A stretch of 64,000 nt of DNA from the NCBI GenBank assembly GCA_002197995.1, contig NGZR01000002.1, forward strand, positions 9,114,001 to 9,178,000, read 5' to 3'. The position numbers and the translations under genes were made by a program. The stretch is from Gaeumannomyces sp. JS-464 (taxonomy: Eukaryota; Ascomycota; Sordariomycetes; Magnaporthales; Magnaporthaceae). Below the pieces are notes generated by a model. It saw only the letters and a program-made list of their open reading frames with translations. It had not been told where the DNA came from and searched no databases. The number at the start of each line of letters is the position of its first letter. Positions within the stretch are counted from its first letter, which is position 1. Positions 6,965 through 30,624 of the stretch are shown here, one piece after another.

Positions 6965-7701
6965 CTAGTCCTTCTTCCGGAGGCTCTGCTCGCGGGCGAC
7001 ACAGGCGTGCAGCGTCTGGTAGAACTTCATCTCTACCTTGTCTAGCGATCCATCATCCTCAACCGTCAGAAAGGAGAAAATCATATACAGCAAAAGGGGG
7101 GCGGGGGAGGGAGGGATGAGGCACTTACTGTAGCTCTGGAGGACCTCAGCCTCGTCGGCCGAGTCCTCGCTGTCGTCCTTGGCCCCGACGACGGTGACGT
7201 CGTGGGAGGCGCGGTACGTCGCCCTGGGTGGGACGCGGTCCTCGATGTCGAGGGACTCGCGGACCTCGACGGCGAGGCGGTAGACGCCCGGGCGGCGCAG
7301 CACGAAGCCGCCGACCTCGTAGTAGTAGCGCGGCTGGCGCGCGACGCGGCCCATGGTGCTGGTGCGCGTGTGCACGACCAGCAGGCGCGCGTCGCCGTGC
7401 GTGTTGCCCGCCTCCCGGTCCAGCCGCTCGGCCGGCCACGAGACGAAGGCGGCCTGGTCGGCGGCGCGGTGGCCGTCGGCGCCGGCGCCGTGCACGGCCA
7501 GCCGGAAGACGAGGTGCTGGAGGTTCCAGCGCTCGGCCGCCGCCGCGTCGACGCCCACGATCAGCGGGAACGCCGCGGGCGCGCCGGCCGTCGCCGTCAC
7601 GGGCCCGTGGGTCAGCAGGCGGCCGTCGGAGCGCTGGTAGGGCCGCGGCTGGGCGGCTGGGCGGGCGGGTTGTCTGGGTTGGCTTTGCGGATCCGGCCCA
7701 T
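6965..7701 (-). CDS. Compact velvet-like domain protein A
   Basis: Probably a single-domain relative of the fungal velvet regulators (VeA/VelB/VosA, an NF-kB-like fold). Start ATG at 7701 (MGRIRKANPDN) is joined to the main frame by one missing base near 7640 (a CC that should be CCC). The intron is 7128-7042 (GTAAGT...CTAG), and the last exon ends VEMKFYQTLHACVAREQSLRKKD-like at 6965. Total is about 216 residues. The family signature is the strand pair EVGGFVLRRPGVYRLAVEV followed by RATYRASHDVTVVG, matching the velvet block 'F-x-F-x-D-L-x-V-x-x-x-G-x-Y-R-L' and the following 'V-x-S-x-x-F-x-V'. Alternating hydrophobic strands precede it (AAFPLIVGVD, HLVFRLAVHG). No nuclear localisation signal is evident. 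It is the first of four same-strand paralogue-like genes. The family call is made by eye. Confidence 0.55.
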
Positions 7702-8509
7702 GGTGGAGAGTTGAGAGAGATGGTGCAGGTTTCCCGTCCCCTGTTCCGATCAAGGTTGCTTGGTCTCTTTAGTGCGCCGTCTTGGTGCGCTGTCTTGCTG
7801 GCTGGTGTGATATATCGGACGGGGGGTGGCAGGTGATTTCGAGGGTGGCATATTTTTGAGTGTTGGTCGAAGTGTGGTTGTGATATTGGTCGGTAGGAAG
7901 GGTTGGGGTGCCGTGCCCTCTCTGTTTTTGACCGAGCTACCAGGTGGGTTGGAACGGCCATGGACTTAGCGGCGGATCTGAGATCTGTGTGAGAGCACGC
8001 TCATATCAGGCTGGGGCAACCAGCCATCTTGGCTGCTATCCTTTCGGAGGAGCAAAGACTATGAATCTTTCGTACAACCCTCCGGCCTTCCTTTGATCGG
8101 TAGCTGCGGCGTTGTTTCTTGGTGATGCAATTATATAATTAATGCATATAGCAGGCTGTTGCCGTTCCCCATTTCTGTATTGCTTCTCTCTGCTCCGAGC
8201 CCTCGCCTTTCCCCTCTGGGTATAGGTCACCCTCGGCTGGAGAAACTTCGTGACTGGGGGACTGTTGGATTACCCAGCTCACACACATTGTCACCATATG
8301 AGCCCAAAACTCAGAGATTTACTGAGCGAAGCGAGGCGTGCAAGCACTTCTAGCAACCTGATGACAAACCAACGCAAACATCACACACTAGAGCCCTCGC
8401 CCGACCATATTTTATACTTCGACAGACTCAGACAGGTACCAAACACAAACACCACAACAGCGAGTGACCTGCTGCCCAGTTCCAAAGACTCGAATCTCAT
8501 CCAGTCTGC
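7702..8509. other. Intergenic region between velvet-like genes A and B
   Basis: About 0.8 kb, upstream of gene A and downstream of gene B. No open frame with recognisable content and no repeats of note. Confidence 0.5.
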
Positions 8510-9192
8510 TTACCAACCTTTGCTCCCAAGACACCCATTTTGGGGAGTTTCAAAGAATAGCACAGAATCCTGACTCTTTCTGGGAAAGCCCGGTCCCTGG
8601 CGGGATATAGTCGGATCGACAAGAATACCGCGAACTTTGAGGTCTTCCATGAGCTCGGCTTGCTCGTTGTCTGTGTGTTTAGTTGTGGTTAAGTGCTGTA
8701 TCAGTTTGATGCCGAGACATGTTGCGGGAGCCATAGTGCATAGTGACGCGTTTCCTGTACGTACTTGGCTGGGGCTTGGACGCGAGGTACCTCTCCACCT
8801 CACCATCTCCTGCCGACTTGCCGACAATCACTACCGACCGTCGGCCGTGTCGGGACCTCTTGATCTTGGCCGCGATGCCAAACCAGCCGTCGTAGTGAAT
8901 GGAGGGCGCGTGTACGACGAAGTAGGCCGCGCCATTGTCCCAACGGACCGCGCGCTGCCTCGCCACCTTGTCCCGTGGCTCCAAACGGCACCAAACTCTG
9001 GATGCAGCTCTTGTCCGCCCCTGGTCACGAGGTGGAATTCGACATGCAGTTCGTCAATCAGCATATCCGGGAACTCGTCGGCTCGGATTCTGAAGACGAT
9101 GGGCACGGCGAATTTCTGCCCCTTTCGGCAATCTCTGGCCCGGCCAGGATAAACTCTCCATGGGTCGGGACGCCGGGCTGTGATGAGGCCAT
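8510..9192 (-). CDS. Compact velvet-like domain protein B
   Basis: Start ATG at 9192 (MASSQPGVPTHGEFILAG). The reading frame must be shifted twice: near 9120, where a G run appears one base short, and near 8985. This restores a continuous domain: KFAVPIVFRIRAD, then ELHVEFHLVTRGG, then FVVHAPSIHYDGWFGIAAKI, then RRSVVIVGKSAGDGEVERY. The third block aligns without gaps to the velvet 'FxFxDLxVxxxGxYRLRF' block of its neighbours. The intron is 8764-8671 (A|GTACGT...ACACAG), joining QPN to NEQAELMEDLKVRG; the stop is at 8510. Total is about 195 residues. Like gene A it has almost nothing outside the domain. It could be a decaying copy, but the frameshift types match those in essential genes of this window. 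Confidence 0.5.
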
Positions 9193-9845
9193 CCTGGGTG
9201 GAAGCAAATGATGGTCTCGTTCGTGCCTTGCTAGGTATTTCGTAGCTTATGGCGATGAAAAGAGTCGAAATGAAACGCATTCGTCTCCGAGTCTCTTTCC
9301 TGCCAGGTCACACCGTCCGGCCCCTCTGTAGTATTTATGTACACAATTCGCCGTTTGTGACACAGTTGGCGAACGTTCACCATTCACGTACTTCGGTGGT
9401 AATGGAATGGGAACACACTAATTCGCCGAATCGGTGTCACCGCATGCGTCCGGGTTTTTTGTTGGTCCAACATCAACACCCCAGAGCCAATGATTTGCCT
9501 GACAACCACGTGGGTTTGGGCAACAGGTAGCCGTTCAGAAAACAGAATATTTTGGATCTTCCGATTCACGGAGAGGGTTTCAAATGGTTGTTCTTTGTTA
9601 TATTTAGGGATGGAGTATCCGGTAATCTTTCCCTCCGTGTAATTATGGGCGTCTATCGTCGTGGCGTAGAAGCTCAAAGCACAGAAGAAGTATCCCCAAA
9701 AATCCGCCCCGTGTCCAAAATCGAGTTCGAGTCTTCGGACCTGTGATTCTCCTTCCTTCATCTCTTGCCCCGTCCTGCAATGCTTTATCGGACTAAGACT
9801 TCATCTTGGATCAGCACCGCAAAGGAGAGGATCTCATAGATGCGT
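9193..9845. other. Intergenic region between gene B and the secreted-protein gene
   Basis: A 125-codon open frame on the minus strand (9761-9384) lies here, but it has no recognisable motif, signal peptide or splice context. I do not call it a gene. Confidence 0.45.
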
Positions 9846-10534
9846 TTAGGAGCAGTTGAAGGGAAGGCGGAGGCATGCAGTGTGGCCGTTGTTGTCATTG
9901 TAGTTGTTGCGGTGGCCCTGGTCGAGCAGTGTCTTGCGGCCCTTGTACCTGTAAACGTGGTGTGCTGGAGTGTCAGCTTCACATGCTTGAAGGGAGACGA
10001 AGTCTGGAAACTGCATGTGGTCGTTGGAGAGAGAAAACCCTTGCAGCTCGCATAGACTCGTGCAGCCAAATCTCTTCCTGTCCAGGCCCCTTAATCTGGA
10101 TACAGGGAGGGGGAAACTAACCATATGTAGCCGCGGGGTCGATCGGGATGGTCGATGGTCAGCTTAACCGTGTAGGGAAGCTTGGACCTGAAGCTCCAGG
10201 TGCCCGACGAGGGGAGCGGGTCGTCGTTGTCCGAGAGTGTGCCCTGTGTGTTTGCCAGGCGGCCCTAGGTAAGCAAGTATTCCAAAGCCGTTGATACCTC
10301 TGAGTCCAGATCGTCCAGGATCACGGGCCGTTCACTAACCAGCCAGCGGCAGTTGCTGTCGTAGAGGGAGGCAATGTGGCCGATCGGGGAATCCATCGAA
10401 AAGATGGCCAGGGTGCAGAAGCCAGGTCCGGTGGGCGTGCACAGGTGCGAGGGAGCAATGCGCTGGGCGTTGGTGGGAGCAACCTGGCCCGCAACGGCGG
10501 CGAGAACGGCAGCGAGGATCTTGGGGAGACGCAT
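9846..10534 (-). CDS. Small secreted cysteine-containing protein (effector-like, unrecognised)
   Basis: The start at 10534 opens a clear signal peptide (MRLPKILAAVLAAVAGQV, cleavage likely after PTNA near residue 23). Proposed exons are 10534-10298, 10243-10122 and 9948-9846, giving about 153 residues. Intron 1 (10297-10244, 54 nt) has GT-AG borders and a CTTAC branch-like motif; intron 2 is 10121-9949. The mature part has about five cysteines (HLC, GFC, SNC, TAC and the C-terminal FNCS) and beta-rich segments (TWSFRSKLPYTVKLTI). This is the profile of small secreted proteins of plant- or insect-associated fungi, but I recognise no named family. It lies between velvet-like genes B and D on the same strand. 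A shorter intron 2 is possible and would change the C-terminal third. Confidence 0.6.
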
Positions 10535-12007: not shown

Positions 12008-12454
12008 CTACTGAAGTCTCTCGGTGATCTCGTCGATAACACTCTGTTCGAGCCCCTTCGGCTTGTTCCTCTCCTCCTGCTCCGCAGTCAGGGGGCCCGG
12101 CACCACCTCGAACGTGTTGCGGCACCTGAGGGACGCAATCCGCCGGTGTTTGTTCCAGGCCTCGACCTCGATCTTGTACGTTCCCGTCTGCAGGAAACGG
12201 AGACGTCTGAACATGAACCAGTACTCGACACTGTCGTGAGTGCAAGGCGTGCAGTCGACGTCGGCTCCCTCGAGATAGCCCGGGAGCAGATACTCCTCTC
12301 CCGAGGGGCCCTTGAGTCGAAGCTTCAGGTGGAAAGGACCCAGCTTGTCGTCGTCGACGATCATGACGATGATGGGGACGTCGATATCCCTGCCGACAAT
12401 GACCGTCTGAGGCCCGCTGACAGGGATGCTGATGTCGAAGGGGTTCCAGATCAT
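12008..12454 (-). CDS. Minimal velvet-like domain protein D (148 aa, single exon)
   Basis: The cleanest member of the local family: one uninterrupted exon from ATG 12454 (MIWNPFDISIPVSG) to TAG 12008, with no frameshift. The order of strands matches a velvet domain reduced to its core: DIDVPIIVMIV, PFHLKLRLKGPSGEEY, FMFRRLRFLQTGTYKIEVEA, then SLRCRNTFEVVPGPLTAE and a C-terminal helix (GLEQSVIDEITERLQ). The third block aligns gap-free with genes A, B and E and with the velvet 'FxFxDLxVxxxGxYRLRF' consensus; the fourth matches the 'VxSxxFxVxxAKxFPG' position. There is no nuclear signal and no disordered extension, unlike VeA or VosA. An alternative reading is an unrelated beta-sandwich (arrestin- or NF-kB-like) domain. 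Confidence 0.6.
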   Translation of the reverse strand: MIWNPFDISIPVSGPQTVIVGRDIDVPIIVMIVDDDKLGPFHLKLRLKGPSGEEYLLPGYLEGADVDCTPCTHDSVEYWFMFRRLRFLQTGTYKIEVEAWNKHRRIASLRCRNTFEVVPGPLTAEQEERNKPKGLEQSVIDEITERLQ

Positions 12455-14282
12455 TGTCGGTAGATGGACAGGTAGAGATCGGAGTTCTTTGGTGTTTGCT
12501 GCTTGATTTTCAAGGGGGTCGAAAATTATCAACCGGTTGGTGTTGCGAGAAGGCGTTCCTTGCTTTTACAACGGAAAGGGACCGGACGGGCTTATTTGTA
12601 GTCGTCAAAGCACGGATATCACAGACATCCGGCTTCTTTGTGCCTGTCTTTGGTTGACTTTTCAGGACGAGGATTCCCGGAAGCGGACAACAAAGGCGCC
12701 TGACTGTCGATGTTGCCGCGGTGGGCCCCCATCGCAAATCGTATTCTTTGTCGAGAGAGCTGAAGAGTCTCAAAGAAGAAACACACTCGGGAGGCATGTA
12801 CGGTGTTGTCAGGGACCTCGAATACTGCAATGTCTCTGTCAGCGAGGTTTCCGACCCAAAGCATCACAACCAAGTGCCGACCTATTAATTATCTCGATAT
12901 TGTTGCACGAGGGTTCCCTTGATCGCTATGTGTGATCTGGTTGCCATAGAGAATCTCCAGGTTCGATAGATTATGCGTTTGAACTGCGGACTTTCAGTGC
13001 TGCTTGTTCGGAGTTTTCAAGAGGACGAACGTGACGTGAGCAAAAGAAGAAACAAAGAAATCAAATATAGTGCGCGGCACAACGCTACCAATCCGTTTGC
13101 GATGTATCGGTGGCGAACAGTTCTGTTTTTCTTCTTTGATGCATGCGAGTTCCATTTCTTTGTCGTCGTTGGTGGTCACCAGGCATCGAGCCTTTGACGC
13201 GTGCACGTGGACTTGCCCCGGACGAAAGCGTGACTGTCTTGGGAGTGCGCGTCAGAAGCGGTAGGTGTTGCTCCGCGTCCCTTGTGAACCAAAAAAGCTG
13301 ACACATCCACTTGCACTTGCTTGAAATTGACAGGGGGCCGCTGGCCTCCGTACCTAGGCGCGGGAAGGACCGCGTTAGTGCACGTGCGGTGGAATGATTC
13401 CGAGCCTGTCCGCCAAGGGGCTCGAAAATAGGTAACCATTTTAGAACAGGCAGGGTTCTCTAATTATTTCATTCATTTTCCCTCTTTGGCTGGTAGCTAT
13501 ACATGTATTTAACCCCAGTCTGCCATGGCATGGTATCTCGGCTCTGATTGCCCGAGGAAAGCAGGCGATACATACATCGAGAACTTGGAATACACCAAAA
13601 CAGCCCCTGTAATGATGTGCCTCGAGTGGGATAGCATACTAACCAGGACAGAGTTCCGAAAGCTCCGAGAGAGAAACGTCCGTTCCAACCCCTTCCTACA
13701 CCAGTCCCATCAGGGTAGGTCTCGCGGCTGGTCGCGTTCCCGTATTCACGGCCAACGAGAGGGCGGGAACTACTGCATCCATCATGGCTAGGAGAGTCAC
13801 ATGCCCGTCTTCTGCATGGATCCGCACTAAAGGCGTGGCCCTAGTCTAGACAAAGTGGTGGGGAGTCTGGGAGTGTGCTCAAGGGCTAGGAGGTATCGGC
13901 CGGCTCCCCGACGTTCGTCAAAATAGCGCGCATCCCTGGCCCAGGCCTAGCCGGCCTTGGCACAAGGCCAGCCTGGAAGGCTACGGGAGACGGAAGAGGC
14001 GGGCCACGGAGGGGACGGCACCCCTAGGCGTGCAAAAACATGGTCTTCCGGTGCGAGACAACTTCAACCCATCCTCCACCTCAGCCTGGCCTTCTCGCTA
14101 CCACGGTGCTATCCCGTTCCAGGGGCTACATGAAACAAACGAGAGGCGAGCTCTGAGCCGGAAACACCTGGGTGGGTGGACTAGTCACGATAATTAGTGA
14201 AGAGCCGGTCTAGTTATCTTAACCGGTTCCCTGGAGGAGGGATGGTCTCTTGCTGTGAACTGTGCTCAAATTAGTACAGGGG
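12455..14282. other. Left flank of the nested retrotransposons
   Basis: About 1.8 kb of normal-GC sequence between velvet-like gene D and the outer LTR. No convincing gene, tRNA or repeat. The base composition changes abruptly inside the LTR at about 14.6 kb. Confidence 0.5.
14278..14282. repeat. Target-site duplication AGGGG (left)
   Basis: AGGGG directly precedes the left outer LTR and recurs directly after the right outer LTR at 28582-28586. Five base pairs is the size expected for Ty3/Gypsy integration. Confidence 0.9.
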
Positions 14283-14593
14283 TGTCACAAGGGTGCAATG
14301 CAGGCTTAAAAGGGTTGGTCTCTATTATGAAAGCTAATAATCTTTCATGGCCTCAAAAGATGCTTAAGGAGCCAGTATCTGCTGAGGGGGTTTATGGAGG
14401 GTGCAGGGATTAAATAGCCAGATCCTCGTGGCCCGTGCGAAGGCTTCGCCCACTTATGCCCCGCCGTTGGCCCGATTGGTAGCCCCATTTGGATAACTGG
14501 CTCCGCTGTTCCGGCGCTTACTTCCTGCAGGCGTTCGGTCTTTCGGGCCTTTGTAAGGCTTTTCCCAAAAGTTAAGGATGCCTCCGTGTAACA
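14283..14593 (-). repeat. Outer element 3' LTR (311 bp)
   Basis: A direct repeat of 28271-28581 with TG...CA ends. The second half (about 14400-14590) is GC-rich and differs from its partner mostly by C/T and G/A transitions. Confidence 0.92.
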
Positions 14594-17500
14594 CAATCCT
14601 CCCTTTCCTAAAGGCGCGCCCCGAGACCCTCCTAGGTTAACCGTGGCTTTTTGCGTGTTAAAGGTTCCTGGTCGGCCTTTTTTTTAGTGGAGGTTAACGT
14701 GGCAAAGGGCACGCGTTCGTCCCTAAGCTTATCAGGGTGTCGTTAATGGAAAGCCACGATTTTGGCCTTGGCTCCCTCGCCATTAAAATGCTTCCAAAGC
14801 TTTTAGGTTTTTATCTCGTCTTTCGGGTATCCTTCCTACTTTACGCGGTATAACACCTTCCTTTAGGGGCTAACTATGGATTTCTTTACCTTTTCGACGG
14901 TGTACTTTCCTTTTATCGGGGGAGCTTTTCGCAAAACCTAGTTAAGGTTAAGCCGTGCTTAAATGCCAGCGCGGTAAAGCTTTATAAGTAACACGTGGAA
15001 AGCATCGTGGATTTTCCAGGTTTTTGGCAAGGTTAAACGGATTGCGAAGGGGGAAATTACCTTCGAAATTCGGAAGGGGCCGAGCATTTTTAAATCGAGT
15101 TTTTTAACAGGGCGGCGAGTTTTAACGTGGCGGGCGTTAAGCATAACGAGCTGTTTTTCGGTTAAAACCGGCAAAGGGCTTCGCTTTTTATCTGCTTAGC
15201 GCTTTATTCGTTCTCGTGCTTTTTTAAGGTAGCCTTTGGCCTTTTGGTGTATTTGGGTCATTTAATGGTTATAAAGCTTGCTATTTGGATTCCTTGTTCG
15301 ACCCGGGAGTAAAAGATTATTAAACGTTAGGTAATATTCATAATTAGCGAAAAAAGGAGTAACGGTGGTATTTGCAAAGGAAGTATTATTATAGGCAAAT
15401 TCCGCTATAGGAAGGAGATCGACCCAGTTGGTTATTTCGTAATTAACGAATAAACGGAAGTAAGCTTCCAAGTTTTAGTTAAGTTTTTCGGTTTGTTTAT
15501 CCGTTTAAAGGTGGAAAGCCGTGCTTATTTTAAGCTTAATCCCGACTAAACGAAGGAAGTTTTTCCATAAGTGGTTCGTAAATTTGGAATTTTTATCGGA
15601 AATAATGTTTAATAGCATACCGTGTAATCGCTAATATTTTTTAGCGAATGTCCGGATAAAATCATCCGTTTTTTTACCTTTTATTTTAAAAAGTACGAAA
15701 TGTGCCATTTTGGTAAATGGGTTTACCATTACCCAAATTAAATTACAATTGTCGCTTAAAAAAAAATCCGTAATAAAATCTATAACTATAGTTTTCCAAA
15801 GCTGGTAATGCAGCTTTATAAATTAAAAGGGTTTAAATGGCGCATGCTTAAAAGCTTTGTTTTTTTAGCATTTTAAACAACTTTTTACGTATTTCCGAAC
15901 GCCCTTTTTAATATTTAGCCATTAAAAGTAGCGCGTAATTAACTCGAAGGTTTTATTTTATCCCTATATATCCGGCGACTTTTATGTTATACTTAAATTC
16001 GAGGACCTTTTTTTGTAAAGCCTTTGGCATTTACAGTTTGTTTTTGCGGTAAAGGAGTTTATCTTTTACTTTTTTTTTTCCTGGCCTTTGCAAGTAGCTT
16101 TGGTACTCGGGATTTAACTCGCCGGTTTTGCGGATTTTGTCGGTAAACTTTGTGGTCCACTTTATTAAGGGGATATTACAAAGTTTAGCGGATGCGAAAA
16201 GCATTAACAATGGTTTTTAACCTTTTTCCGTCGTATTTTCCGTCGTTAAAACCGCCGTTTTAGTTTCGGGGAAGTGTTTTTTTTGCAAAATCGTCGCAAT
16301 CGGTTAATTTTTACTCCCCCCTTTTTTAAGCCTATATTAGGCTAGTTTTAATAGCACGTCGGCTTTATCATTTTGCTTGCCCGGTTTATAATGGATTATA
16401 AAATTATAGCTTAACAATTGCTAAGCTTATTTTGCTTACCGCCTGTTTAAAACCTTAGCGGTAAAGAAATATTCCAAATTCCGGTGGTTTATGTAAACTT
16501 TTATCCGGTATTTGGCTCTTTTAAAATAATAACGCCATTTGCCAAAATTGTCGATAATTGCTAGGAGCTTTTTATTATAAATTTCGTAGTTAATTTCGGC
16601 CGAGGTTATTTTACGGAAGTAGAAAGCGACGGGGTAAAGTTTATTAATAGCGGGGTTTCGTTAAAAAAATATTGCGCCGTAAGCAAAATTTAAAAAGTCG
16701 GTTTTCATTTATGCAAAAAGTTTTAGGTCGAAATGTCGAAGGATCGGTGGTATCGTAAATGCCTTTTTAAGCAATTCGAAAGCTTATTGCATGTTTTTGG
16801 TTTATAACCATTATGCTTTAAAAAAAAAATTAGCTATAGTTAATAGTCGAACAATAAATAAAAAGTTTTTAATAAACCTTTTAAAAAGTTAGCGAAGCTA
16901 ACGAACGATTGGCAATCTTTTAATGTTTTTCGGGGCTTTTTAATCGAAAATGGCTTGGATTTTATTATTGGATATAAAAATGCTTTATAAGCCGATAATA
17001 TTTTAGGAATTCGACTTCCTGGGTTAACTAAACGCATTTTCGGGGAGTTACGGCGAGGTAATGGTCCGTAAATCGTTATAAGATTTCCTTAATTAGTTCG
17101 TCGTGCTATTTTTCCATTTCCGCGTAAATTAAAAGGTTATCGAAATACACTAATAGGCCCGTATTAATTAGGTTTATAAAAATGTGGTTTATAAGGCTTT
17201 AAAAAGTAGCTAAAACGTTAATAAGTTTTATTAGCATAACGGTAAATTCGAAAAGTCCGTATTTATAGCGGAATGCCGTAAGCTATTTATATCCCTCTTT
17301 TATGCGGATTAAATTAAAGCCGGTTTTTAAATCGATTTTCGTTATCCATTTCGCGTTTCGCAGCTTATTTTAAAGTTCGATAATTAAAAGGATAGGATAG
17401 CGGATCGGTATTATTTTAAAATTAAAATCCCTATAGTCGATAACGGGTTGTAAAAGGTCCAAAGGGTTTTTTTTCTCGGCGAACAGCAAGGGAAAACCGA

Positions 17501-20500
17501 CGGCGGAAATTAACCTACGCATCCGTCCTGCTTCCAGGTTCTTTTAAAGCTAAAGCTTAAAAACTTCCAATTTTCGGGCACTTATTTAATATAAAGGTCC
17601 CCATATAGGTTTGGTTCCTTTTTTAAAGTTAATTTTATGGTTTTAGGGTTGGTAATCCGGTAAGCGTATGGCGGTTTCGGCTGTTATAATAGGAAGGAAT
17701 TCTTTAAACTTTTTCGGCATTATGTTAAATTCGCCGGGGGGTTTAAAGTCCCGTAACTTGTCCTTAAGTTTACCGGGGGGCTTAAAATCCCGGGGAATAA
17801 TAGTACGTTACTTAATAAAAGCGATGGTTGCTAGTTCGATAGTTAGGATGTTTTCGGGCAACGGTGCTTTAAGCTTCCGGGCTTTTAGCCGATTGCATTT
17901 TCGACATCCTTTTAATTCGAACCGGACGTGTTTTAGTTTTTCGAAAAATCCTAAAAGTTTATGTTTTTTAGTCCATTCGTAAAGCATAAAAACGTTAAAG
18001 TCGGAATTAAAAGGGCTAACTTCGAATGTTTCCATTGTTCGGTAGTTTTAATATCGTAATACGACATTAAAAAGGAGTTGTTTTTCTCCTATTCCTGTTA
18101 AACCCCCGTAAAAAGCTCCCATAATTCGGGGAATAAGCCGGTTAGTAACGTGTTTAAATAATAAAACCGTAATTTGGTCCGAAATAACGGTAATGTCGCT
18201 TTTTAAATCGAAAAGGACTTTAACAGGAATTTCGGGGTAACCTTTTAATCGGATATATATATCGACGATAAGCTTTTTTTTTTTCATTTTTGCCCCGGTT
18301 TTAGTTAAGGCGATTTTAAATTGTTAACAATCGAAATCCGATTCCGAAAGTTTTTCGAAATATCGGTTTATAACGGGGGATGCCTATCGTGGCCGGGTTA
18401 CGGCCGCGACTTTAGCTTTTTTAAGTTCGTAACCCGCGGGTTCGTTAAAAGCGACCCTTTTATTGCTAGCCACTTTAGTCGGGGGCGGAAAGAGATTTTT
18501 ACCGGCAACGTCCTTCCTTGCGAAGCATTTTAAAGTATAGTGGTTTTCCCGTTTACATTTCTAATATGCCGCTTTTGCTTACTTCCTTTAATCCACGTCC
18601 TTTTGGTTAACACCTTCCAATGCTTGTTTAATAAAAGGCCAAACGTGGTCCTTTTTATCGCTTATAGCGGCTTTTTTAGCTGCCGCCGGTTTTAAAAATT
18701 AGCTTAAATTATTAGCTTTTTTAAAGCTGTTATCGCGGGGATGGCCCGCGTTCGAACGCTTTTATGTTAAAACGGGCCCTTTTTTTCCCGATTGCGATTT
18801 TAGCCCCGGGTTTTAAAGCATAACCTTATGGATTTTTCCTGCCTGTTAAATAGCAATTAGGAATTCCTCGTTCGTATTAAAAAGGCTTTCCCGTTGCGAA
18901 TATATAAAACGAGTGATTTTTTTAAGCAAAGTGTTAAAAATATATTCCCGGAAAGTAACGCCGAACTATTACACTGCCTCGTTAAAATCGAAAAGCTCGG
19001 TAATGTATTGCACGGTATTACTTTTATATTTAAGTTTTCGCATTTTTCGGGCGTTGCGGTGGTGCTTAATAGCGTTTTTAAAACGCTTTTAAAGCGCGAA
19101 CGAATAAACGCGCCAATTGTTTTCCAGTCCTATTCCCCGGATGGACTTTATGCGTTAATAATGCCAAATTTAAGCGTTTTCGGTAAGGAAAAACCTAACC
19201 CAGTTAATTTTTATAACATTATTTGGGAAGCTATCTATTTAAGTCTTTATATAGGCTGTAACGCGGAATTACCAGGGTTTAAATGCCGCTAGGTCCTTTT
19301 CCGCGTACTTTTTAGGTTTATTAAGCTAAATTGGATTAACGATAGCGGTTAAGGCCGTGGATCGGTTAAAACCGCGACGAAGTTCCCGAATAATGTCCCG
19401 AAATCCCAAATCCCTAAACCGTCGGGACATTTTTCGAGGATCGCCCCGGTTATTCCCACCGTGGTCGTTTTTATTATTTAACGACGATTCGGAAAAGTCC
19501 GATAAGTTTTCCGGGGTTGTAATATAATTAGGGGGTTCGTAAAGCGGTCCTTAAAAAAGGGCCCCGAATAACCCACTTAAACTGCCTAAATAACGTAACC
19601 CGGCGGTAGCAGCGCGGTATTATTAATAAGCAGCAGCGGCCGTAGCTTTAACTTATTACCGTTACAGGTTATTAAAGGATAAAAGGTCGTTTTCGGCGAA
19701 ACTTTGTTTAAAAAATGCGGATTGTTTAAAAGCCGATTGTTTTATAAAATCTACTTCCGTTATGGGAAGCGGGATTTCGGCTTAAACCTCCTCCTTTATT
19801 AGGGTCCTTTATTAGGATAAAAGTGGTAGCGAGCTTCGTTATAAAGCGGAATAAACCGTGGTAAATTTCGGGCGAATGCTTTGTTTTTCCAAACGTCGTG
19901 CCTTTTTAAAAGTTTCGCGTATAAAAGGTTTAACTTAAGCCAAAATGCGGCGTTTTAGCTTTGTAAAATCGCCTAAAATGGCGGCTTCCTTAGCTATAAG
20001 GTTTCGAATTTGGGTTTCGGTTTGCCCAGTTTAATTCGTAACACTTTATTCGAAAAAAAAAAGCGTTAATAAAGTTTCTTAATGTAAATTTGCTAAGCTT
20101 TAAAAACTTATCGCAAATGTGCTAATGCGCCATTTTAAGCACGGTAATCGTAAGTAAAAAAAGCGATAACGGTTCATATTTGCTATGCGAAAACTTAACC
20201 TTTTTGTTTTACCCGTTGCCGGAATTGCTTTTGTTATTCTTTCGTAATAGCAATCTCGTTTTAGTAAAGCGATATAATGGTTTAGTAAATTCGAGTTATA
20301 CCTTCGTATTGCTATTTAAGGGTTTATAAATCGGCCCGTTTTTTAAGGCGTTCCGAAATAACATCGCGTTGTAAAAAGGCGATCGCGTTATAAGCGTTAA
20401 TAAACCCATATTACACCTCTTATACCTAAGCTAATAGCGCGGGAAAAATGGCAACCTAAATAATGGAATAAATTCTTATAGCGTCGTTAAACGATAGGGG

Positions 20501-20879
20501 TTGGTATAAAATAAAAGCGTTATCGGCATCGGTTATAAGGGTGTCGGGAGCTTTTTGCGACCCGGAATAGAACCGACGGTCCCGAAAGGGGTTTTAGGGT
20601 CCGTTTATCCTGCTATTGTTAACACCGGGCCCTAATTTTTTCCTTTTCCTTAAAGCTGGATTTCTCCGGGTCTTTACTAAAAAACAACTTTGGAAATTCC
20701 CGAAGGGAAATAAACGCCGAAGCGGGTTATTAGGACGCAAGCGCTTAAGTATAGCCGTTTGCGAAGTTATAATAGGATTCGTATTAAAGCGGCCGATAAA
20801 AATTGCCGATTTATACCTATAAAAAATGCGGGGTAAAATCGCGTAAAGCAGTAATTTTTTAAAGCTTAAAAGGAAAAAT

Positions 20880-20884
20880 AATAA
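20880..20884. repeat. Target-site duplication AATAA (left, inner element)
   Basis: AATAA immediately before the inner 5' LTR is repeated immediately after its 3' LTR at 28229-28233. Confidence 0.9.
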
Positions 20885-21374
20885 TGTTACGACCAAACAT
20901 AAAAACAGGAAGCTAGGAAAAGGAAGGAACGGTGGCCTAAAGCATTGCGAACCCCGAGCGGGGCACGACCACGCCCGGGGCCCTCCTCCCCCTATCACGT
21001 AACCAGGTTACCTAAGCTAAAAGTAATTTGTAATTTGCCAAAAATTACAAATTACAAGGAAAAATGATTTGCGATTTGCTAAAAATACAAATCGCAGGGA
21101 AAAGTGATTTGTAATTTGCTATAAATTACAAATTAGGGACGATTGCCATATAAAAACTACGAGTATAAATAAAAAAGGTTTCCTACCACTTTAAATAGCT
21201 TAAACTAAGGCTTCGGCATTAGTTAACCTAAGTTAGCTTTAAAGCACCCCCTTAGGTAAGCAATTAAACTACTATTACCAAATTACCAAATTCCTTTAAA
21301 ACCTTTTAACTAGCGTATTGTTCCAACACCTTTCCTAAATGTCTTACCCTAAAAGCAAAAGCTTGTTTGTAACA
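20885..21374 (+). repeat. Inner element 5' LTR (490 bp)
   Basis: Begins TGTTACGACC and ends TTTGTAACA; a direct repeat of 27739-28228. It is more AT-rich than the 3' copy. It contains three tandem hairpin-forming units at 21023-21136. Confidence 0.95.
21023..21136. repeat. Three tandem palindromic units in the inner 5' LTR
   Basis: Three successive units of roughly 38 bp. Each is an inverted repeat around a short A-rich loop: the first and third have arms of the AATTTGTAATTTG / ATTACAAATT type and the middle one GATTTGCGATTTG / CAAATCGC. The same array is present in the 3' LTR at about 27876-27990. Confidence 0.85.
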
Positions 21375-24300
21375 TTTTAACTAATCCTGTTTAGCATTTA
21401 CCGGAAGTACGAACAATACGATAATAGCGATTTTAAAAGCTAGCAAAACAGCGCTTACGGCTAGTTTCGACTACGGTAGCGTAACTTACACCACCGCTAA
21501 TGCTTTTAACCTTTTTTAACTTGTAGCTAAGGAATTACAGCAAAGTAAAAATAAGCTAGCCGAAACCGAGGTTAAAGCGACCGGAATCGGCGGTTAGCCG
21601 AAACCCACGGTGCTTACGTACAAATTCCCCACATTTAACAAATACGATAGGAAAAAAGGGAAGCTAAAAACTTTTTTTACTAAATGCAAAAAGTATTTCC
21701 TGTTTTACTAAACTTATTTCGAACGAAAAAAACAAAAAGTTGCTTACGCCGCCACGCGCTTAAATGGCAAAGTTAAAAACTAGTTCGAACTTATATGGGC
21801 GGATTACTTAAAAGGATATAACGAGTTTAACGAAAATAAAAGGTCGTATTTGCCAGCTTTAACCGGTTCGGAGAAAAAATCGCCAAAATGTTCGGACAAA
21901 TCGATAAAAAAAAAGTGGCTAAAAAAAAGCTATTTTAGCTTTAATAAAAAGGAACAGCGTTAACTTACGTTTTAAAATTCCAGCGATTCGTTAATAAACT
22001 TAATTAAATTAAGCAAACCAAAATCACCCACTTTTATAACGGTTTACGGGATAATGTAAAAAACGAAATGGTTAAGGTTAAACGACCAAAAGCTTTCGCC
22101 GAATACGTTATTACGGCCGTTAGGATTAGCGATAAGCTATACGAACGAAAGCTGGAAAAAAAAGGCTAATAACCTAAAACTATGGTATAAAGCAAAGCTA
22201 ACTAGAAAAAAGCTAAGCAATAATAATCGATAACGTTAAAAACACATTTTAAACTTATGGACTTTAATGCGGGAGCTACGCATTAAAAGAAAGCCCGGTT
22301 CCAAAATCCCAAAAATAGGAAGTGCTTTAAATGTGGCCAATTAAGCCACATAAAAAAAAACTACCCGCAACGTAATAAACGCCAAACAGCGGTAACCCGG
22401 AAAGCGGAAAACAGGAAAAACGACAACCTGTGCCTTAAAGCAGCGTTTAATTGGACTTTTTATTATAAAAACTCGTGCCCGGTACATTAGTTTAATAAAA
22501 ACGCATTAGGATGGTCCTTTTAAAAAAGGCTGGCTATAATGCGTAAAAAACCCAGCAAAAGCCCCATTAAGCTCGAATACGACAGCGAAAGTAAGCAGTA
22601 CGTTATATGCGAACTTACGAAATCCGAAAAAAAAAAAAAACAATATCGCCCGGATCGTTGCCGAAATTAAAAGAACAAAGCAAAGGTTAAACAATTCGGC
22701 ACTCGAAAAAGGGTACGAGGCTTTACCCGGCGAAATTAGCAATAAAAAAGGGATTTCTTTAAACACAAACGACGAAATTAACCGCGAGCCGCTAGGCTAA
22801 ACTTACCTCGTAAAAAGCTACGAAAAAAAACCAAACCTTAGCTAAACGATTCGAACGTTCGACGTTAGTAAAGCATACACCTCGCTTAGGTTTTCCAAAA
22901 ACGACCGATAGTTTTAAAACCAGCTTAAACCATTTGGAGGGGTAATGCGCAAAGAACCGGCCCACGGCGACGATAGCTAATTTTTGGACTGGTTTCGGAA
23001 TGATTAAGCCGTAACGTACTACGGAAAACCTTACGACGGGGCCCCGGAAATGGAACGACGGGATACGGAGGGATATCCGCTTAATTACCCAAATTTGGAT
23101 CCTAATTCGACAAAATATGTCGAACTTTTCTAAGCAAAATGCACATAGGATAAATGCCAATAGCATTTAGCGATTAAGTTAAAAGTCGACTTTTTCCCTA
23201 AAAAAAATAGTAAAAGGCTTGTTAAGCACCCAAAGCGAAACTGGCAATTTCCGAAGTGGAAATTTAAAACGGTGGATTTCCGACAAACCACCGCCACTTT
23301 CGCGCCGTTACCAAAATACTTTATGCTATGCATATTAAAAGTCCTAATATACCACAACTGCGGGAAGTTAAAATGCAAAATGCATATAAAAAAAAGCAAA
23401 AGCTTGGACCGACGGGTTTACCCGGTCCGGAATGCTTGCAAATAAAAGAAAAGCACTTTAGGAAGTAAAAAACTAAGGAATCCACCCGAGATAAAAGCAC
23501 GGCGTAAAGCATAACAACGAACAAAAACCTTAACCGCTACGAACATCGATTAACATTAACATTTAATGGTTATGCTATTGCATAAAGGAAAAAGGCTAAA
23601 CGCTTTAATCGATAGCGGGGCCTAAAGCAATTACCTTTCGCTAAAAACTATTACGGCAGGTAAGGTGGCTGCAAAAAAAGGCCAAAAAGAAATGTATTAA
23701 AAAGAAATCGAGGCCGGAAGCTTAAACGCGTGCCGTGCACTTTATTTACTTGGAAGGGGCTTATTTAATCGGCTGCTAAGCCCGTGCGCTTAAAAAACCC
23801 CTTACATGCCGTAACAAAAACAGCGAAAAGGTACGGCATTTTAATATAAAGGAAATAAAAACCGTACAGTTTAAAAACTGTAAAAAGGAAACCAATTACG
23901 TTTAATAATGGTTTTATCGATAAAAAAACCGATCACTTTAAATTTCGATACCAACGGAAAAATTTTCAAATAACCCTGGACGTTATGGATATAAAAAGGG
24001 TAAATGTAATTTTAAAAATCCCCTAGCTTAAAAAGCACAACCCACGAATAAATTAAACCACCGGCCAAATTTAATAAAAGGAGCCACTAGCAACCGAGGA
24101 AGCTTAAAAGCTACGAGCCCCGAACAATGCGCAAATAACACTACTAAAGGCAGCCATAACGGTGGCAAAACAAAGCAGCCAGTTTAGGAAGTTAATAATA
24201 ATAAATTCGCGATTATTTAGCAATAACATCGATTAAAACGAATAAACGGAGCTCGTCGCCCAAATAAAAAACGTCCCAAAAAAGTACCACAAATATTAAA

Positions 24301-27030
24301 AGTTGTTTAAAAAAACCCTAATAACCGAACTTCCGGAACATAAGCCGTTCGACTTTAAAATTAAGCTTAAATTAAAAGCATAACTTAAATACTAAAAGCT
24401 GTATTAACTTACCCCTCGATAATAAAAGGTGTTAAAAGAACAGTTAAAAAAGGACCTATAAAAGGGATTTATCCGTCCTTTTAATTCGCCAGTAAAATAC
24501 GGGATTTTTTGGAAGCCCAAAAAAAATGGGACGGATCGAATATGTATTAACTACCGCCTATTAAACAAAGTTACTGTAAAAAATCGGTATCTTTTACCTT
24601 TTATTAACGAGCTAAAAAACATGCTCGGGAAAGCCTAGTACTTTACGGCTTTGGACTTACGCAAAGCTTACGGCTTGTTACGGATTAAAAAAGGCCAAAA
24701 ATGGTTAACAACTTTTAAAACAAAACTCGGGTGTTACGAATTTTTAATAATAACCTTCGGTTTTACTAATGCGCTAGCTATATTTTAAAAAATAATTAAC
24801 CACGTACTGCGCGAACATTTTGGGGTTTTTGTATTCGCGTACCTGGATAATATCCTAATCTTTTTAAAAATAATGGAAAAGCATAAAAAACACGTTTATA
24901 AAATGCTTTAAAAGCTGCTTAACGCAAAGCTTTTAGTTAAACCAGAAAAATGCGTATAATATACTTAAAAAGTTACATTTTTAAAATTCGTAATTATATT
25001 AGGACAAATTGCGATAAACCTTAAAAAAGTTAAAAAAATAAAAAACTGGCCCGTATTTAAAAACGTTAAGGAAATACGAGGGTTTTTTAACTTCGTAAAC
25101 TTTTATAAAAGGTTTATCCAAAAATGCAGCAAAAAGGCAGCACTATTTACGAATTTTACTAAAAATAACACCCAATTTTATTAGGGGAAATAAAACAAAA
25201 AGCTTTCGAAACGCTACGGGACGCAATAGTATAAAAGCCAGTACTATATTGCTAAACTTAAAAAAACCATTCGAAATCGAAATTAACGCGTTAAATTATA
25301 CGATCGAAGGACAATTCGGATAACGAAACAACCAAAAAAAGCTACATTTATATGCTTTTTTTTCGTAAAAACTTAACGGATTTAAGTTAAATTACTAAAT
25401 TCACGATAAAAAACTTTTCGCAATTATTCGAGCTTTCGAAAAATGGCGCCCGTATTTATACGAAACAAACTATTAGGTTATGGTATACATCGATTATAAA
25501 AATCTATTACATTTTACTATAAGCAAAAACTTAAATAAAAGATAAGTCCGGTAAAGCGAGTTTTTTTTAAAATTATAACGTCCGGATCGAATACCGGAAA
25601 GGATTGGAAAACGGCAAAACAAATGCTTTTAACCGCCGATTAAACCACAAAATTAACATATTAAAACAAACTCGTGTAATCCTAGCGCAAAAACCTAACG
25701 AATCCTTAATTCCGGTTTAGCGAACGCTAGCTAAAACAAAAAACAGGAAAAATAAACCCCTAAAAAATCCTACAATTTATAAACAATTGGCTTATAAACA
25801 TTAAAAAATAACCAAAACTTGGAAACGCTTTCGGCAGCATTACGGGTTTATAAAAACCCGCGCCGAAATATAAAAAGCAATTAAAAATTGTAAAAGCTAT
25901 GCGAAAAATAAAGCCAGCAAACATAAACCTTACAAACTATTATAACCTTTACCGGCGTTTAATAAAGCATAGTAAAAAGTTACCATAAACTTTATCGTTA
26001 AACTTTCTAAATCGAAAAAGCTTTTAACGAATATCTAATATAAAGCATTTTTAATAATAATAAATAAGCTTACCAAATACGCTTTGTTTTTACCTTACAA
26101 AAAAAGCAGCAATGTTAAAAAATTGGCATATACCTTTATTAAAAACGTAATAGCGGAATACGAAACGCCGAACCGCTTAATTACGGATAAAAATAAGCTA
26201 TTTATAAGCAAATTTTAAAAAGGACTTACGGCTAGCTTAAAAGCAAAGCACTTTTTATTAACTGCCTATTATTCGCAAACGGATAAACAAATAAAACGGA
26301 TAAACCAAACCATAAAACAATACTTACGGCATTACGTTAATTACAAATAAATAACTAGATATAACTATTCCTTATAGCGCAATTCGCGTATAACAGTTTA
26401 ATGCACGAAAGCATAAAAACCACACCGTTTTACGCAAACTACGGGTTTACATTTACGGCGTACAAAAAACCTAAAGCGGGAAAGCACGCTTTTACAGCAG
26501 GAATACAAGTGAAAAAGCTTACTAAACTGCATAAACAATTCCAAAAAAAGCTCGAAAAATTACGACAAAACATATCCACTTAAACAAATAAAAAAAGAAT
26601 TAAAAAACCGACTTTTAAAAAGGGGATAACGTTTATTTTTTTCGACGCAATATTAAAACAAAACGACCAAACGATAAGTTAAACCATAAAAAACTGGGAC
26701 CTTTTAAAATGCTAAAAAAAATTTCGAACGTTAATTACGAACTTTAATTACTACCAACCATAAAATCCCACCCGGTTTTTCACGTTTCCTTATTCGAACT
26801 AGCCCCGCCGGGCTTTAAAAGCAACGAGTTAATAAAAGTTAACGCAAAATAAAAATACGAAATCGAGGAAATCCTAAGCGAGGATATAATCGACGAAACT
26901 AAGCACTATTTGGTTAAATAGGTAGGGTACGAAATCGAAAAAAGCACGTAAAAAAAGGAAGCTAACTTTAAAAAAGCGCCGGAAGCTTTGGAGGAGTACT
27001 AGCGAAAGGCCTTAAAAAAAAAGTTAACCT

Positions 27031-27408
27031 TTATGCCGAAACTCGAATTCCAATTCGAAACACCCGCACCAAAGTAAACTTACCAATCCGAAACAAAGCT
27101 AAAAGATCGAGGTCCGGGTTAATTACAAAATCGGCCCAGCTCGGGGATAGCGAAGGAAACTCGGGAGCTAATAAATCGAAAAGCCCAAAAAAAACCGGCG
27201 TGCTTACCTTTTCGGCTTCCTCCCGCTTAACACGCTCCAATTCCTCTACGAAGTTAATACCGCGCCGAATCGCGCGTATTTTTTTTTCGTTCCATATACG
27301 CCGCTGTTTTTGCAAACGTATAACCTTTTCCATCGCAATTTCCAATTCCAAATTTAGCTTAAAGCATTGGGCGAAAATATAACGAAGCTTTTTAAAAAAA
27401 GGACCCAA
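27031..27408 (-). CDS. Antisense open reading frame at the 3' end of the inner retrotransposon
   Basis: A 125-codon ATG-initiated frame runs opposite to gag-pol, between the chromodomain and the 3' LTR of the inner element. It is one of the longest open frames in 13 kb of stop-rich sequence. The first half is basic and helix/coiled-coil-like (EKVIRLQKQRRIWNEKKIRA, then FVEELERVKREEAEKV); the second half is hydrophobic and Pro-containing. I do not recognise it. It may be a retained accessory gene of the element, a captured fragment, or a chance survivor of RIP, since antisense frames can escape the Gln-to-stop changes. Confidence 0.3.
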   Translation of the reverse strand: MGPFFKKLRYIFAQCFKLNLELEIAMEKVIRLQKQRRIWNEKKIRAIRRGINFVEELERVKREEAEKVSTPVFFGLFDLLAPEFPSLSPSWADFVINPDLDLLALFRIGKFTLVRVFRIGIRVSA

Positions 27409-27738
27409 AATGTCGCAGCCCGTTTAGTTAAAACGCAAGCATTCCATATAACGAAAAAAATCCTAAAGCGAAGCAAAACACTTTTCCTGCTTTAAAACTT
27501 CGAAGCAGTAGAAATAAAAAGGCATTAAAATAGCAAATGTAAAGATAAAAGCTAAAAAGTCCTTACGACGAAAGGTTAAAGCACTAACCACGGAGGATTT
27601 CTTTTTTTGCACCCGACTAAACATTTTGTTAGCTAAAAAAGGGAATGGGAAAAGGTAAAAAAGAAAGTACTTACCATTAACAAAAGGGAAAAGCAGCAGT
27701 TATAGCCAAAAGGATTTAGCCTGGGAAGGGAAACCTAA

Positions 27739-28228
27739 TGTTACGACCAGATACAGGGACAGGAAACGGGGAAAAGGAGGGAACGGTGGCTTAAAGCACT
27801 GCGAACCCGAGCGGGGCACGACCACGCCCAGGGCCCTCCTCCCCCTGTTACGTAACCAGGTTACTTAAGCCAAAAGTAATTTGTAATTTGCCAAAAATCA
27901 CAAATTATAGGGAAAAATAATTTGCGATTTGCCAAAAATCACAAATCGCAGGGAAAGGTGATTTGTAATCTGCTATAAATTACAAATTAGGGACGATTGC
28001 CACACAAAAACTACGAATATAAGTAAAGGAGGTTTCCTACCACCTTAAATAGCTTGGACTAAGGCTTCGGCATTAGTTAACCTAAGTTAGCTCCAAGGCA
28101 CCCCCTTGGGCAAGCAATTAAACTACTGTTACCAAGTTACCAAGTTCCTTTAAAACCCCCTGACCAGCGTACTGTTCCAACACCTCTCTTAGGTGTCCTA
28201 CCCTAGGAGCAAAAGCCTGTTTGTAACA
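27739..28228 (+). repeat. Inner element 3' LTR (490 bp)
   Basis: A direct repeat of 20885-21374 with the same TGTTACGACC...TTTGTAACA ends. It is preceded by the purine-rich gggaagggaaa tract that would serve as plus-strand primer. Confidence 0.95.
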
Positions 28229-28233
28229 AATAA
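28229..28233. repeat. Target-site duplication AATAA (right, inner element)
   Basis: Matches 20880-20884. It shows that the inner element integrated into the outer one about 40 bp from the outer 5' LTR. Confidence 0.9.
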
Positions 28234-28270
28234 ATCATTGTAAGCGGTCCTAAATGGAAAAAAAATTATT

Positions 28271-28581
28271 TGTTATAAGGGTGCAATGCAGGCTTAAAAG
28301 GGTTGGTCTTTATTATAAAAGCTAATAATCTTTCATGGCCTTAAAAAATGTTTAAGGAGCCAGAATCTGCTAAGGGGTTTATAAAAGGTGCAGGGATTAA
28401 ATAGCCAAATCCTCGTGGCCCGTGCGGAGGCTTCGCCCACTTATGCCCCCGCCGTTGGCCCGATTGGTAGCCCCATCTGGATGACTGGCTCCGCTGCTCC
28501 GGCGCCTACTTCCTGCAGGCGCTCGGTCTCTCGGGCCTTTGTGAGGCTTTTCCCAAGAGTTAAGGATGCCTCCGTGTGACA
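28271..28581 (-). repeat. Outer element 5' LTR (311 bp)
   Basis: Direct-repeat partner of 14283-14593. It is followed by AGGGG at 28582-28586, identical to the left duplication. Confidence 0.92.
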
Positions 28582-29851
28582 AGGGGCCCCTTGGCGCAGA
28601 AAGGGGGCATACATGGATTGGGAGGGAGGCAGTGTCACTGGAGTCCTCCCCTTCGGGTTCACAGACCCCTTTCTCGCCCGGCAGAGGGACGAGACCAGTG
28701 CTGACGTAGAACGGTGATAGACCCAAGACCGATAAAGGAAGAACGGCAAGGTGATGTTTATGCAAGTAACATGATCCTTTAGTCCGTGGAGGGCCTAGAC
28801 CTTGACCGTATATCCTGCAATCTAGACTCCTTCTTGTCCTAGGGCAGGGCACCGTGGGAGTTCACGCGGAGGTAGGAGTCCTTTTGGTGGAGGGTCACGG
28901 GCGCCAAGCTAATGCGAGGGAGGGAGGCGAGGAGCTTGAAAGGATGTCACTGCCACAGTGGCCAGTCTGGCCGCCACGCCCCTTGGCTCACAGCTATGAC
29001 AAATACCTTAGGCGTGGTATCTGGAGCGGCATGAATGCTATCAACGAGAAAAAAGTGAGGCGAAAGACGCGATTCCCACCGAACTAGTTATGTAGTTCCA
29101 CATGCACCGCAGATCATGTCTTCTTTTATCATTTGGCCACAACCCCCGAACCTACCTACGTAACTGGGAGACCTGTGATCGTCAGGACCGTTGCGGAGGC
29201 CTCACGCCTCGAACTTGGCTCATTGATCGCCGCCTCGGGACCTCGCGACTCCGGTCGATTCTATGAAGGGACTGCATGCCTGGGCATCGGCCGGCGTGCC
29301 GATCAGTTCCCAAAGGGGAAAAGAGAAAGCTGACTAGGAATCGGGGCTGAAGTGTTGTAGGGATGGATACCAAGGCTCTCTTCACATCATCAACGTCGCC
29401 CGCGTCCCGTCCCGCCCTGGACGAGCGATGCCAGCCCTAGTCGCATGAATCACTGGACCCGGTGCCCGGCACGACTCTTTTGGGCACGCACCAAGCTGTG
29501 GGCACGGTTGGGTCGACTGTTCTGACGACTCTGGTAGCTATCGGTTCCCTATTTGAAGCATCACGTCGGTAGAAGCTGTAATCGAGAAAGCTCGGTCTAC
29601 ATTTACATGTGCGATTTCTGTCTAGCAAAAAGCCACAAGGTATGTAACGCACAATGAGTATCATCCCCACTTCCAAACACTGTTCCATCTTGACCCTGTT
29701 CGCCTAGCCCACCGTTTCCGCAGCAATAAAACAGCATCAGATGAACCGTAAAAGAAACCAAACGCCAACAAAGAGAACGCCACCAGGGCTACCTTGACAT
29801 ATCAAACAAACTAGTCTCGTGGAAACTGCCATTAGTGATCCCTTTGCGCCC
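28582..29851. other. Right flank of the nested retrotransposons
   Basis: Normal-GC sequence between the outer LTR and velvet-like gene E. Short open frames only; none is convincing and no repeat is seen. Confidence 0.5.
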
Positions 29852-30624
29852 TCAGATAAAGTCGATAAAATCACTGCTATCAATTTGGAGGTTGTCCATA
29901 TTGTGATGGTCCTGGAGCCGGAACAAAAGTCTCTGGACGGGTTTGCCTGCAAATAGTGGTCGGTCAACATCAAAGGAGCACAAAGTGAAGGTCGTGTATC
30001 TTACTAAGTTTCTCCTTGGGAACGCTGCCCTCCATGACTCGGATGGGGCCCGAGACGACCCTCGCGACAGGCTCCGCATATTCAGAAGCGGTAGACCTCG
30101 ACGTGCAGAGCATAAGTCCCAGGCCAGGCGATCTTGAGGCCCGAGAAGGCAAAGTAGAGGTGGACGTCCCTCCGTCGGCACACCTACTCCACCGGAGACG
30201 TCCAGGCGGCCTTGTTGTTGCTAGCGCTGTTGCTGCTGCTGCTGCTACCACCACCGGCACGGCTGCTGCCGCCGGCGCTTCGCTTCTTGGAGCTCTCCCT
30301 GGCCGGGTCGACGATGATGGGGTCCGAGTATGTGGGCTGGAGGCGTGGCACATCAGGGCGTGCGTGCCGCGCTGCGACTCGAGGGCTTCCTGGTAGTTTG
30401 AGGTGCCCGGGATCACGGCGGCCTCGACGGGCTGGTCATCCAGCGTGACGAGGCTGCAGTGGGCGTAGACGGTCTCGCCGGCCTGGTTCGGGGCAGGATG
30501 CGGACCGCCACGGGCGGGATCAGCTGCCCCACCCCGCGTACGAGATGGGCTGGACGACGAAGCTGAGGTCCCACGACCTGCGGATGTCCTCGTCGCTCAG
30601 GTGCTGATGTTGCTGGTCAGACAT
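29852..30624 (-). CDS. Velvet-domain protein E (about 250 aa; several frameshifts)
   Basis: The member most like a classical velvet domain. Start ATG at 30624 (MSDQQHQHLSDEDIRRSWDL). Following the protein across frames gives LSFVVQPISYAG, then LIPPVAVRILP, GETVYAHCSLVTLDDQPVEA, a Ser/Gly/Asn-rich loop, FAFSGLKIAWPGTYALHVEV, and PVARVVSGPIRVMEGSVP. These match, in order, the velvet positions for 'VxQxP', 'DPPPIVQL', 'SLW', 'FxFxDLxVxxxGxYRLRF' and 'VxSxPFxVxxAKxFPG'. An intron at 30004-29947 (GTAAGA...TTTGCAG, 58 nt) keeps phase, and the last exon ends SSDFIDFI at 29852. About five 1-base shifts are needed (near 30530, 30490, 30348, 30185 and 30085). The gene may be intact with assembly indels, or decaying beside the retrotransposons; the sequence alone cannot decide. 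Confidence 0.62.

What the first reader, a model, noticed from the sequence alone, without database searches (positions are those of the whole stretch)
6965..30624. A cluster of four compact, highly diverged velvet-like domain genes on one strand
Genes A (6965-7701), B (8510-9192), D (12008-12454) and E (29852-30624) share one strand and a gap-free block: EVGGFVLRRPGVYRLAVEV, FVVHAPSIHYDGWFGIAAKI, FMFRRLRFLQTGTYKIEVEA and FAFSGLKIAWPGTYALHVEV. This sits where velvet proteins have 'FxFxDLxVxxxGxYRLRF', and each block is followed by the 'VxSxxFxV' strand. Known fungal velvet regulators (VeA, VelB, VosA, VelC) are, to my knowledge, dispersed, and most are much longer. Here they are nearly bare domains, very different from each other, so this is an old tandem expansion. 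They could be dominant-negative or alternative dimer partners of the velvet complex, or a separate regulatory set. The function is inference.
Basis: partly seen in the sequence, partly recalled or inferred. Interest (0 to 1): 0.85.

Follow-up and report, generated by a model that had tools for sequence, protein, structure and literature searches.

The report
Cryptic velvet-fold gene cluster in fungi
A fungal chromosome carries a conserved cluster of four short genes that look like stripped-down relatives of the velvet regulators of fungal development, without the DNA-gripping part, so they may act by pairing with or blocking the normal regulators.

The parts
6965..7701 (-). Gene A: velvet-like protein; ATG at 7701, one frame change near 7644, phase-1 intron 7128-7042, stop at 6965
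   Evidence: orthologs P0004-P0006; low-confidence model best matches VelB/VosA
8550..9192 (-). Gene B: ATG at 9192, three frame changes (about 9126, 8984, 8599), phase-1 intron 8764-8671; last frame ends in CAIL and stop (CaaX-like)
   Evidence: orthologs P0013, P0015; weakest velvet link
12008..12454 (-). Gene D: intact single frame, 148 aa, velvet-fold protein
   Evidence: orthologs P0001-P0003; model and PDB matches
29852..30624 (-). Gene E: ATG at 30624, six frame changes between about 30537 and 30086, phase-1 intron 30004-29947
   Evidence: orthologs P0011, P0012, P0014, P0014 named as velvet domain protein in UniRef
14001..28000 (.). AT-rich block between D and E with the base-pair signature of repeat-induced point mutation
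   Evidence: TpA/ApT 1.28-1.52 and (CpA+TpG)/(ApC+GpT) 0.54-0.85 in its seven 2-kb steps; 0.40-0.98 and 0.93-1.50 in the other 25 steps; GC

Best explanation
A, B, D and E are an old tandem set of compact velvet-fold proteins, seen so far only in the Gaeumannomyces/Magnaporthiopsis group. They keep the velvet beta-sandwich (shown by model for D, suggested for A, inferred for E and B) but lack the N-terminal DNA-binding loop and its arginine cluster (shown by alignment). Most likely mechanism (inferred): each forms dimers with VelB, VosA, VeA or with each other through the sandwich; such dimers bind DNA poorly, so the proteins tune or block the canonical velvet complexes that control development.
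Against: No Pfam velvet match; no velvet chain in PDB sequence searches. A's model has pLDDT 53. The beta-sandwich is shared with Runt and immunoglobulin folds, and VeA and Runx1 tie for D. B is not found by velvet or E+velvet profiles. Dimerisation residues could not be placed. No interaction or expression data.
Confidence: 0.5

Rival explanations
1. They are velvet-derived but still DNA-binding regulators that contact DNA by another surface, acting as a separate regulatory set.
For: Velvet-like fold of D and weakly A; B has lysines near the lost loop and a neutral to basic charge.
Against: The arginines essential in VelB are absent from the aligned columns in most sequences; D, E and A are net acidic.
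Confidence: 0.17
2. They share only a general beta-sandwich fold (Runt, immunoglobulin or other) with velvet proteins, are not of velvet descent, and do something else, for example protein binding in the cytosol.
Against: Velvet chains rank above all other beta-sandwiches for D and mostly for A; E+velvet profile beats 2000 of 2000 shuffles on D; E ortholog is named velvet.
Confidence: 0.2
3. A, B and E are decayed pseudogenes in this strain, and only D is active.
For: Ten frame changes in three genes, six of them in E; a decayed partial copy of A lies about 400 kb away; E lies near a block of RIP-mutated DNA.
Against: Identity to orthologs is not lower than for intact D (E 80%, A 74%, B 72%, D 69%). 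Of 13 junctions that I chose in HSP70, CCT and acetyl-CoA carboxylase genes, 9 overlap or abut in different frames, leaving no room for an intron, so the assembly has such errors in essential genes.
Confidence: 0.12

Closest known systems
Velvet family regulators VosA, VelB, VeA, VelC (Pfam PF11754; PDB 4N6Q, 4N6R, 9I2S)
   Same: Fold of D and weakly A; the F-x-F-x-x-L...G-x-Y block; a proline-rich strand before it that resembles the velvet 'PPP-I/V-V' strand
   Different: 148-248 aa instead of mean clade lengths of 398-554 aa (PMC10845976); no Pfam match; DNA-binding loop and arginine cluster lacking; clustered in the genome
VelD, the fifth velvet member of most Aspergillus section Flavi species (PMC10845976, section 4 part 1)
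   Same: A lineage-restricted extra velvet gene
   Different: VelD groups inside the VosA clade and is found by ordinary searches; the genes here are not
Runt domain (Runx1)
   Different: Animal family; scores below VosA for D; not among the rows listed for A
Id proteins and IkappaB-like inhibitors of dimerising transcription factors (recalled, no call)
   Same: Proposed way of working: keep a partner-binding fold, lose the DNA contact
   Different: Analogy only; unrelated folds; not tested here

Membership tests
Velvet family (canonical regulator) | Velvet domain detected by the family model PF11754 | tested here: not met
   No PF11754 match up to E 10 (HMMER filters drop most matches above 0.1) in 10 window ORFs of A, B, D and E, in D and A again, or in 11 orthologs; not every frame piece of E was scanned. 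The model does find five loci elsewhere in the genome
Velvet family (canonical regulator) | Velvet-type beta-sandwich fold | tested here: met
   For D only: (predicted model; residues 1-13 below pLDDT 50). A inconclusive (pLDDT 53). B and E not modelled
Velvet family (canonical regulator) | N-terminal DNA-binding region with the arginine cluster R71, R80, R81 (VelB numbering) | tested here: not met
   arginine at R71 in 0 of 11, R80 in 1 of 12, R81 in 4 of 12 A/B/D/E-family sequences; seven loop columns are gapped in the 11 with an aligned N-terminus. Depends on an alignment of very diverged sequences
Velvet family (canonical regulator) | Dimerisation residues G240 and L331 (VelB numbering) | tested here: inconclusive
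   A, B and D rows are gapped at the glycine column; the E glycines lie in a low-complexity stretch; the leucine column is mixed
Velvet family (canonical regulator) | Homo- or heterodimer formation with velvet proteins | not testable with these tools
   No complex prediction or interaction data on hand
One tandem family A-B-D-E | Common descent of the four genes | tested here: inconclusive
   For: shared phase-1 intron 29-40 residues before the C-terminus in A, B, E, cross-profile hits, A+D+E profile on B reached by 0 of 2000 shuffles for both orthologs. Against: D has no intron, profile-profile P values 0.001-0.3 with probabilities up to 20%, B not found by E+velvet profile
Runt or other beta-sandwich families | Better structural match than velvet | tested here: inconclusive

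The most novel reading that the evidence does not exclude
The velvet system of these fungi has a hidden inhibitory arm: a conserved cluster of velvet-fold partners that cannot bind DNA, diversified so that each may pair with a different canonical velvet protein, with one of them (B) carrying a CaaX-like end in two of three species and so possibly holding velvet partners at a membrane.
Probability: 0.3. Interest if true: 0.85.

Novelty: new variant of a known kind. Interest (0 to 1): 0.62.

Why it matters
About 70% of 1,320 Pezizomycotina genomes are counted as having four velvet genes (PMC10845976, section 4 part 1). The two surveys used BLASTP with a canonical velvet domain and kept full domains (PMC10845976 section 20; PMC12077163 section 12), which would probably miss proteins like these. 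If this cluster is what it seems, the velvet family is larger than counted, includes members without DNA binding, and may regulate itself through them. That is directly testable by two-hybrid and gel-shift assays. It would also suggest functions for a set of 'hypothetical proteins' in root-associated fungi.

Tried and rejected
Pfam on window ORFs and orthologs found no velvet match. PDB sequence searches with D, an E ortholog, the E profile and the A profile listed no velvet chain; B was not searched in that way. Profile-profile comparison of tiny alignments gave P values of 0.001-0.3 and probabilities up to 20%, used only as hints. CCDC84, PKD, DUF6941 and Pyridox_ox_2 were dropped because their scores are below cut-off. 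Further copies in the same genome were sought with single D, A, B and E queries: only the genes themselves and one decayed partial A copy were listed. A secreted-effector reading was set aside because none of the four starts with a signal-peptide-like stretch (by eye; no predictor was run). In one search the glycine of E at the G240 column lies in a serine/glycine-rich stretch and was not counted. A tree linking the four to one canonical velvet was not attempted, because divergence is too high. AlphaFold-Multimer, orthologous DNA and dN/dS were not available.

Full report
WHERE IT IS. The window is part of contig C12 (9114001-9178000) of a 53.0 Mb genome in 34 contigs, unnamed here. The named homologs found come from Gaeumannomyces and Magnaporthiopsis, so this is a fungus of or near that group (Magnaporthales; order recalled).

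THE OBSERVATION. D is a clean 148-residue frame. A, B and E are not: aligned to orthologs they need one, three and six frame changes. D needs none against P0002; against P0001 one was used in the last residues, past D's stop. B ends near 8550 in the frame that matches its orthologs, not at 8510. A, B and E each have one phase-1 intron (donors at 7128, 8764 and 30004), 29 to 40 residues before the C-terminus of the ortholog; none is needed in D. Sharing phase and place although the sequences are hardly alike speaks for common descent of A, B and E.

WHY THE FRAME BREAKS ARE PROBABLY NOT BIOLOGY. Protein identity in the broken genes (A 154/207, B 126/175, E 189/235) is no lower than in intact D (104/151). 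Housekeeping genes of the same genome are broken likewise. I chose 13 junctions between neighbouring profile segments of HSP70, CCT chaperonins and acetyl-CoA carboxylase from the matches; 9 of the 13 overlap or abut in DNA but lie in different frames, leaving no room for an intron; the other four are separated by 19, 58, 60 and 91 bases. Acetyl-CoA carboxylase lies in this window, at 56433-62449. Six changes in about 0.75 kb of E is still dense, so recent decay of E is not excluded.

CONSERVED CLUSTER. D has three homologs (3 of 21 candidates): G. hyphopodioides RB595_006875, G. tritici RB597_007569 and one unnamed. A has three (3 of 2020 candidates): G. hyphopodioides RB595_006872, M. poae MAPG_09252 and one unnamed. 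One combined query of B and E pieces gave five (5 of 645 candidates): B in G. tritici RB597_007568 and M. poae MAPG_09253; E in G. avenae RB594_008039, M. poae MAPG_09259 and one unnamed. So A, B and E have close tags in M. poae, A and D in G. hyphopodioides, B and D in G. tritici, and the longest-contig lengths printed for the members of each of these groups agree. No other genome was seen with all four. Gene order could not be viewed; it is read from locus tags. No Pyricularia protein came up, but the search needs shared 5-residue words, so this is a weak negative.

PROFILE TESTS. A profile of the five canonical velvets of this genome ranks E's core first and D third of 1478 window stretches, but with E-values of only 0.24 and 4.9. 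An E+canonical profile finds D (0.005) and A (0.049) ahead of unrelated stretches (1.3), but B only at 15; the E-only profile does not single out A or D; the visible part of B's list shows no A, D or E at the top (that output was cut). Shuffles reaching the real score, of 2000 each, for two sequences per family: canonical profile, E 0 and 1, D 1 and 5, A 10 and 96, B 24 and 171; E+canonical, D 0 and 0, A 0 and 1, B 44 and 120; D+E+canonical, A 0 and 0, B 10 and 15; A+D+E, B 0 and 0; A+D+E+canonical, B 0 and 0. The shuffles keep composition only. My confidence in velvet descent is about 0.9 for D, 0.85 for E, 0.75 for A and 0.6 for B.

WHAT IS MISSING FROM THEM. [quoted passage not shown] Loop A residues K37, K39, R41 and K42 of VosA are needed for DNA binding (PMC3876986, passages). 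VelB R71, R80 and R81 are essential and present in 85%, 91% and 84% of 4,999 velvet domains (PMC13389560, abstract passages). With this genome's VelB-like protein as reference, arginine stands at the R71 column in 0 of 11, at R80 in 1 of 12 and at R81 in 4 of 12 sequences of the A, B, D and E families, and seven loop columns are gapped in the 11 that have an aligned N-terminus; canonical velvets of the genome have arginine in 2 of 2, 4 of 4 and 3 of 4 (one truncated locus has no letters there). The two D, two E and two A proteins tested are net acidic; B is neutral or basic. The dimerisation residues G240 and L331 (98% and 95% of velvet proteins, PMC12077163, passages) could not be placed reliably.

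MECHANISM. Shown: velvet fold for D (by predicted model), absence of the DNA-binding features in the alignment, conservation of sequence and neighbourhood. Inferred: binding to VelB, VosA, VeA or each other through the sandwich, and a modulating, probably inhibitory effect on velvet-controlled development. B's M. poae ortholog ends in CVVL and the window's last B frame ends in CAIL, both CaaX-like (CaaX rule recalled); the G. tritici ortholog ends in CCLHLH. If prenylated, B could hold partners at a membrane.

LITERATURE. Searches on velvet with tandem/paralog (4 papers), Gaeumannomyces (39, 20 listed), velvet-like/VosA/VelB (45, 20 listed), Magnaporthe/VosA/VelC (27, 12 listed), dominant negative (0), VelD (7) and expansion/duplication (2) listed no paper that by title or start of abstract describes such a cluster (open-access papers only). 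A 2025 genome paper on nine Gaeumannomyces strains (PMC11905480, passages) has the word velvet 0 times in its main text.

VERDICT. I do not file them as canonical velvet regulators, because two defining features (family-model match and DNA-binding arginines) were tested and not met.

Noticed in passing
56433-62449 (-): Acetyl-CoA carboxylase gene, split over three frames with overlapping, profile-continuous segments, which points to indel errors in the assembly.
   Followed up: partly
L005 (G000:C12:1435615-1435926): A fifth Pfam velvet locus resembling L001 but matching only the C-terminal part of the domain: apparently a truncated extra copy.
   Followed up: partly
L011/L012 (G000:C12:8718978-8719365): A decayed partial copy of gene A about 400 kb from the cluster.
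   Followed up: partly
10265-10531 (-): Short frame with a signal-peptide-like start (by eye) and several cysteines, between B and D; possibly a small secreted protein.
   Followed up: no
14001-28000: AT-rich block with a strong RIP signature separating E from A, B and D; its content was not identified.
   Followed up: partly
3735-6380 (+): SET-domain protein frame of 882 aa next to the cluster.
   Followed up: no
37911-39836 (+): Frame with a riboflavin kinase domain match near its end.
   Followed up: no
8550-8599 (-) and P0015: CaaX-like ends CAIL (window) and CVVL (M. poae) on gene B, absent from the G. tritici ortholog.
   Followed up: partly
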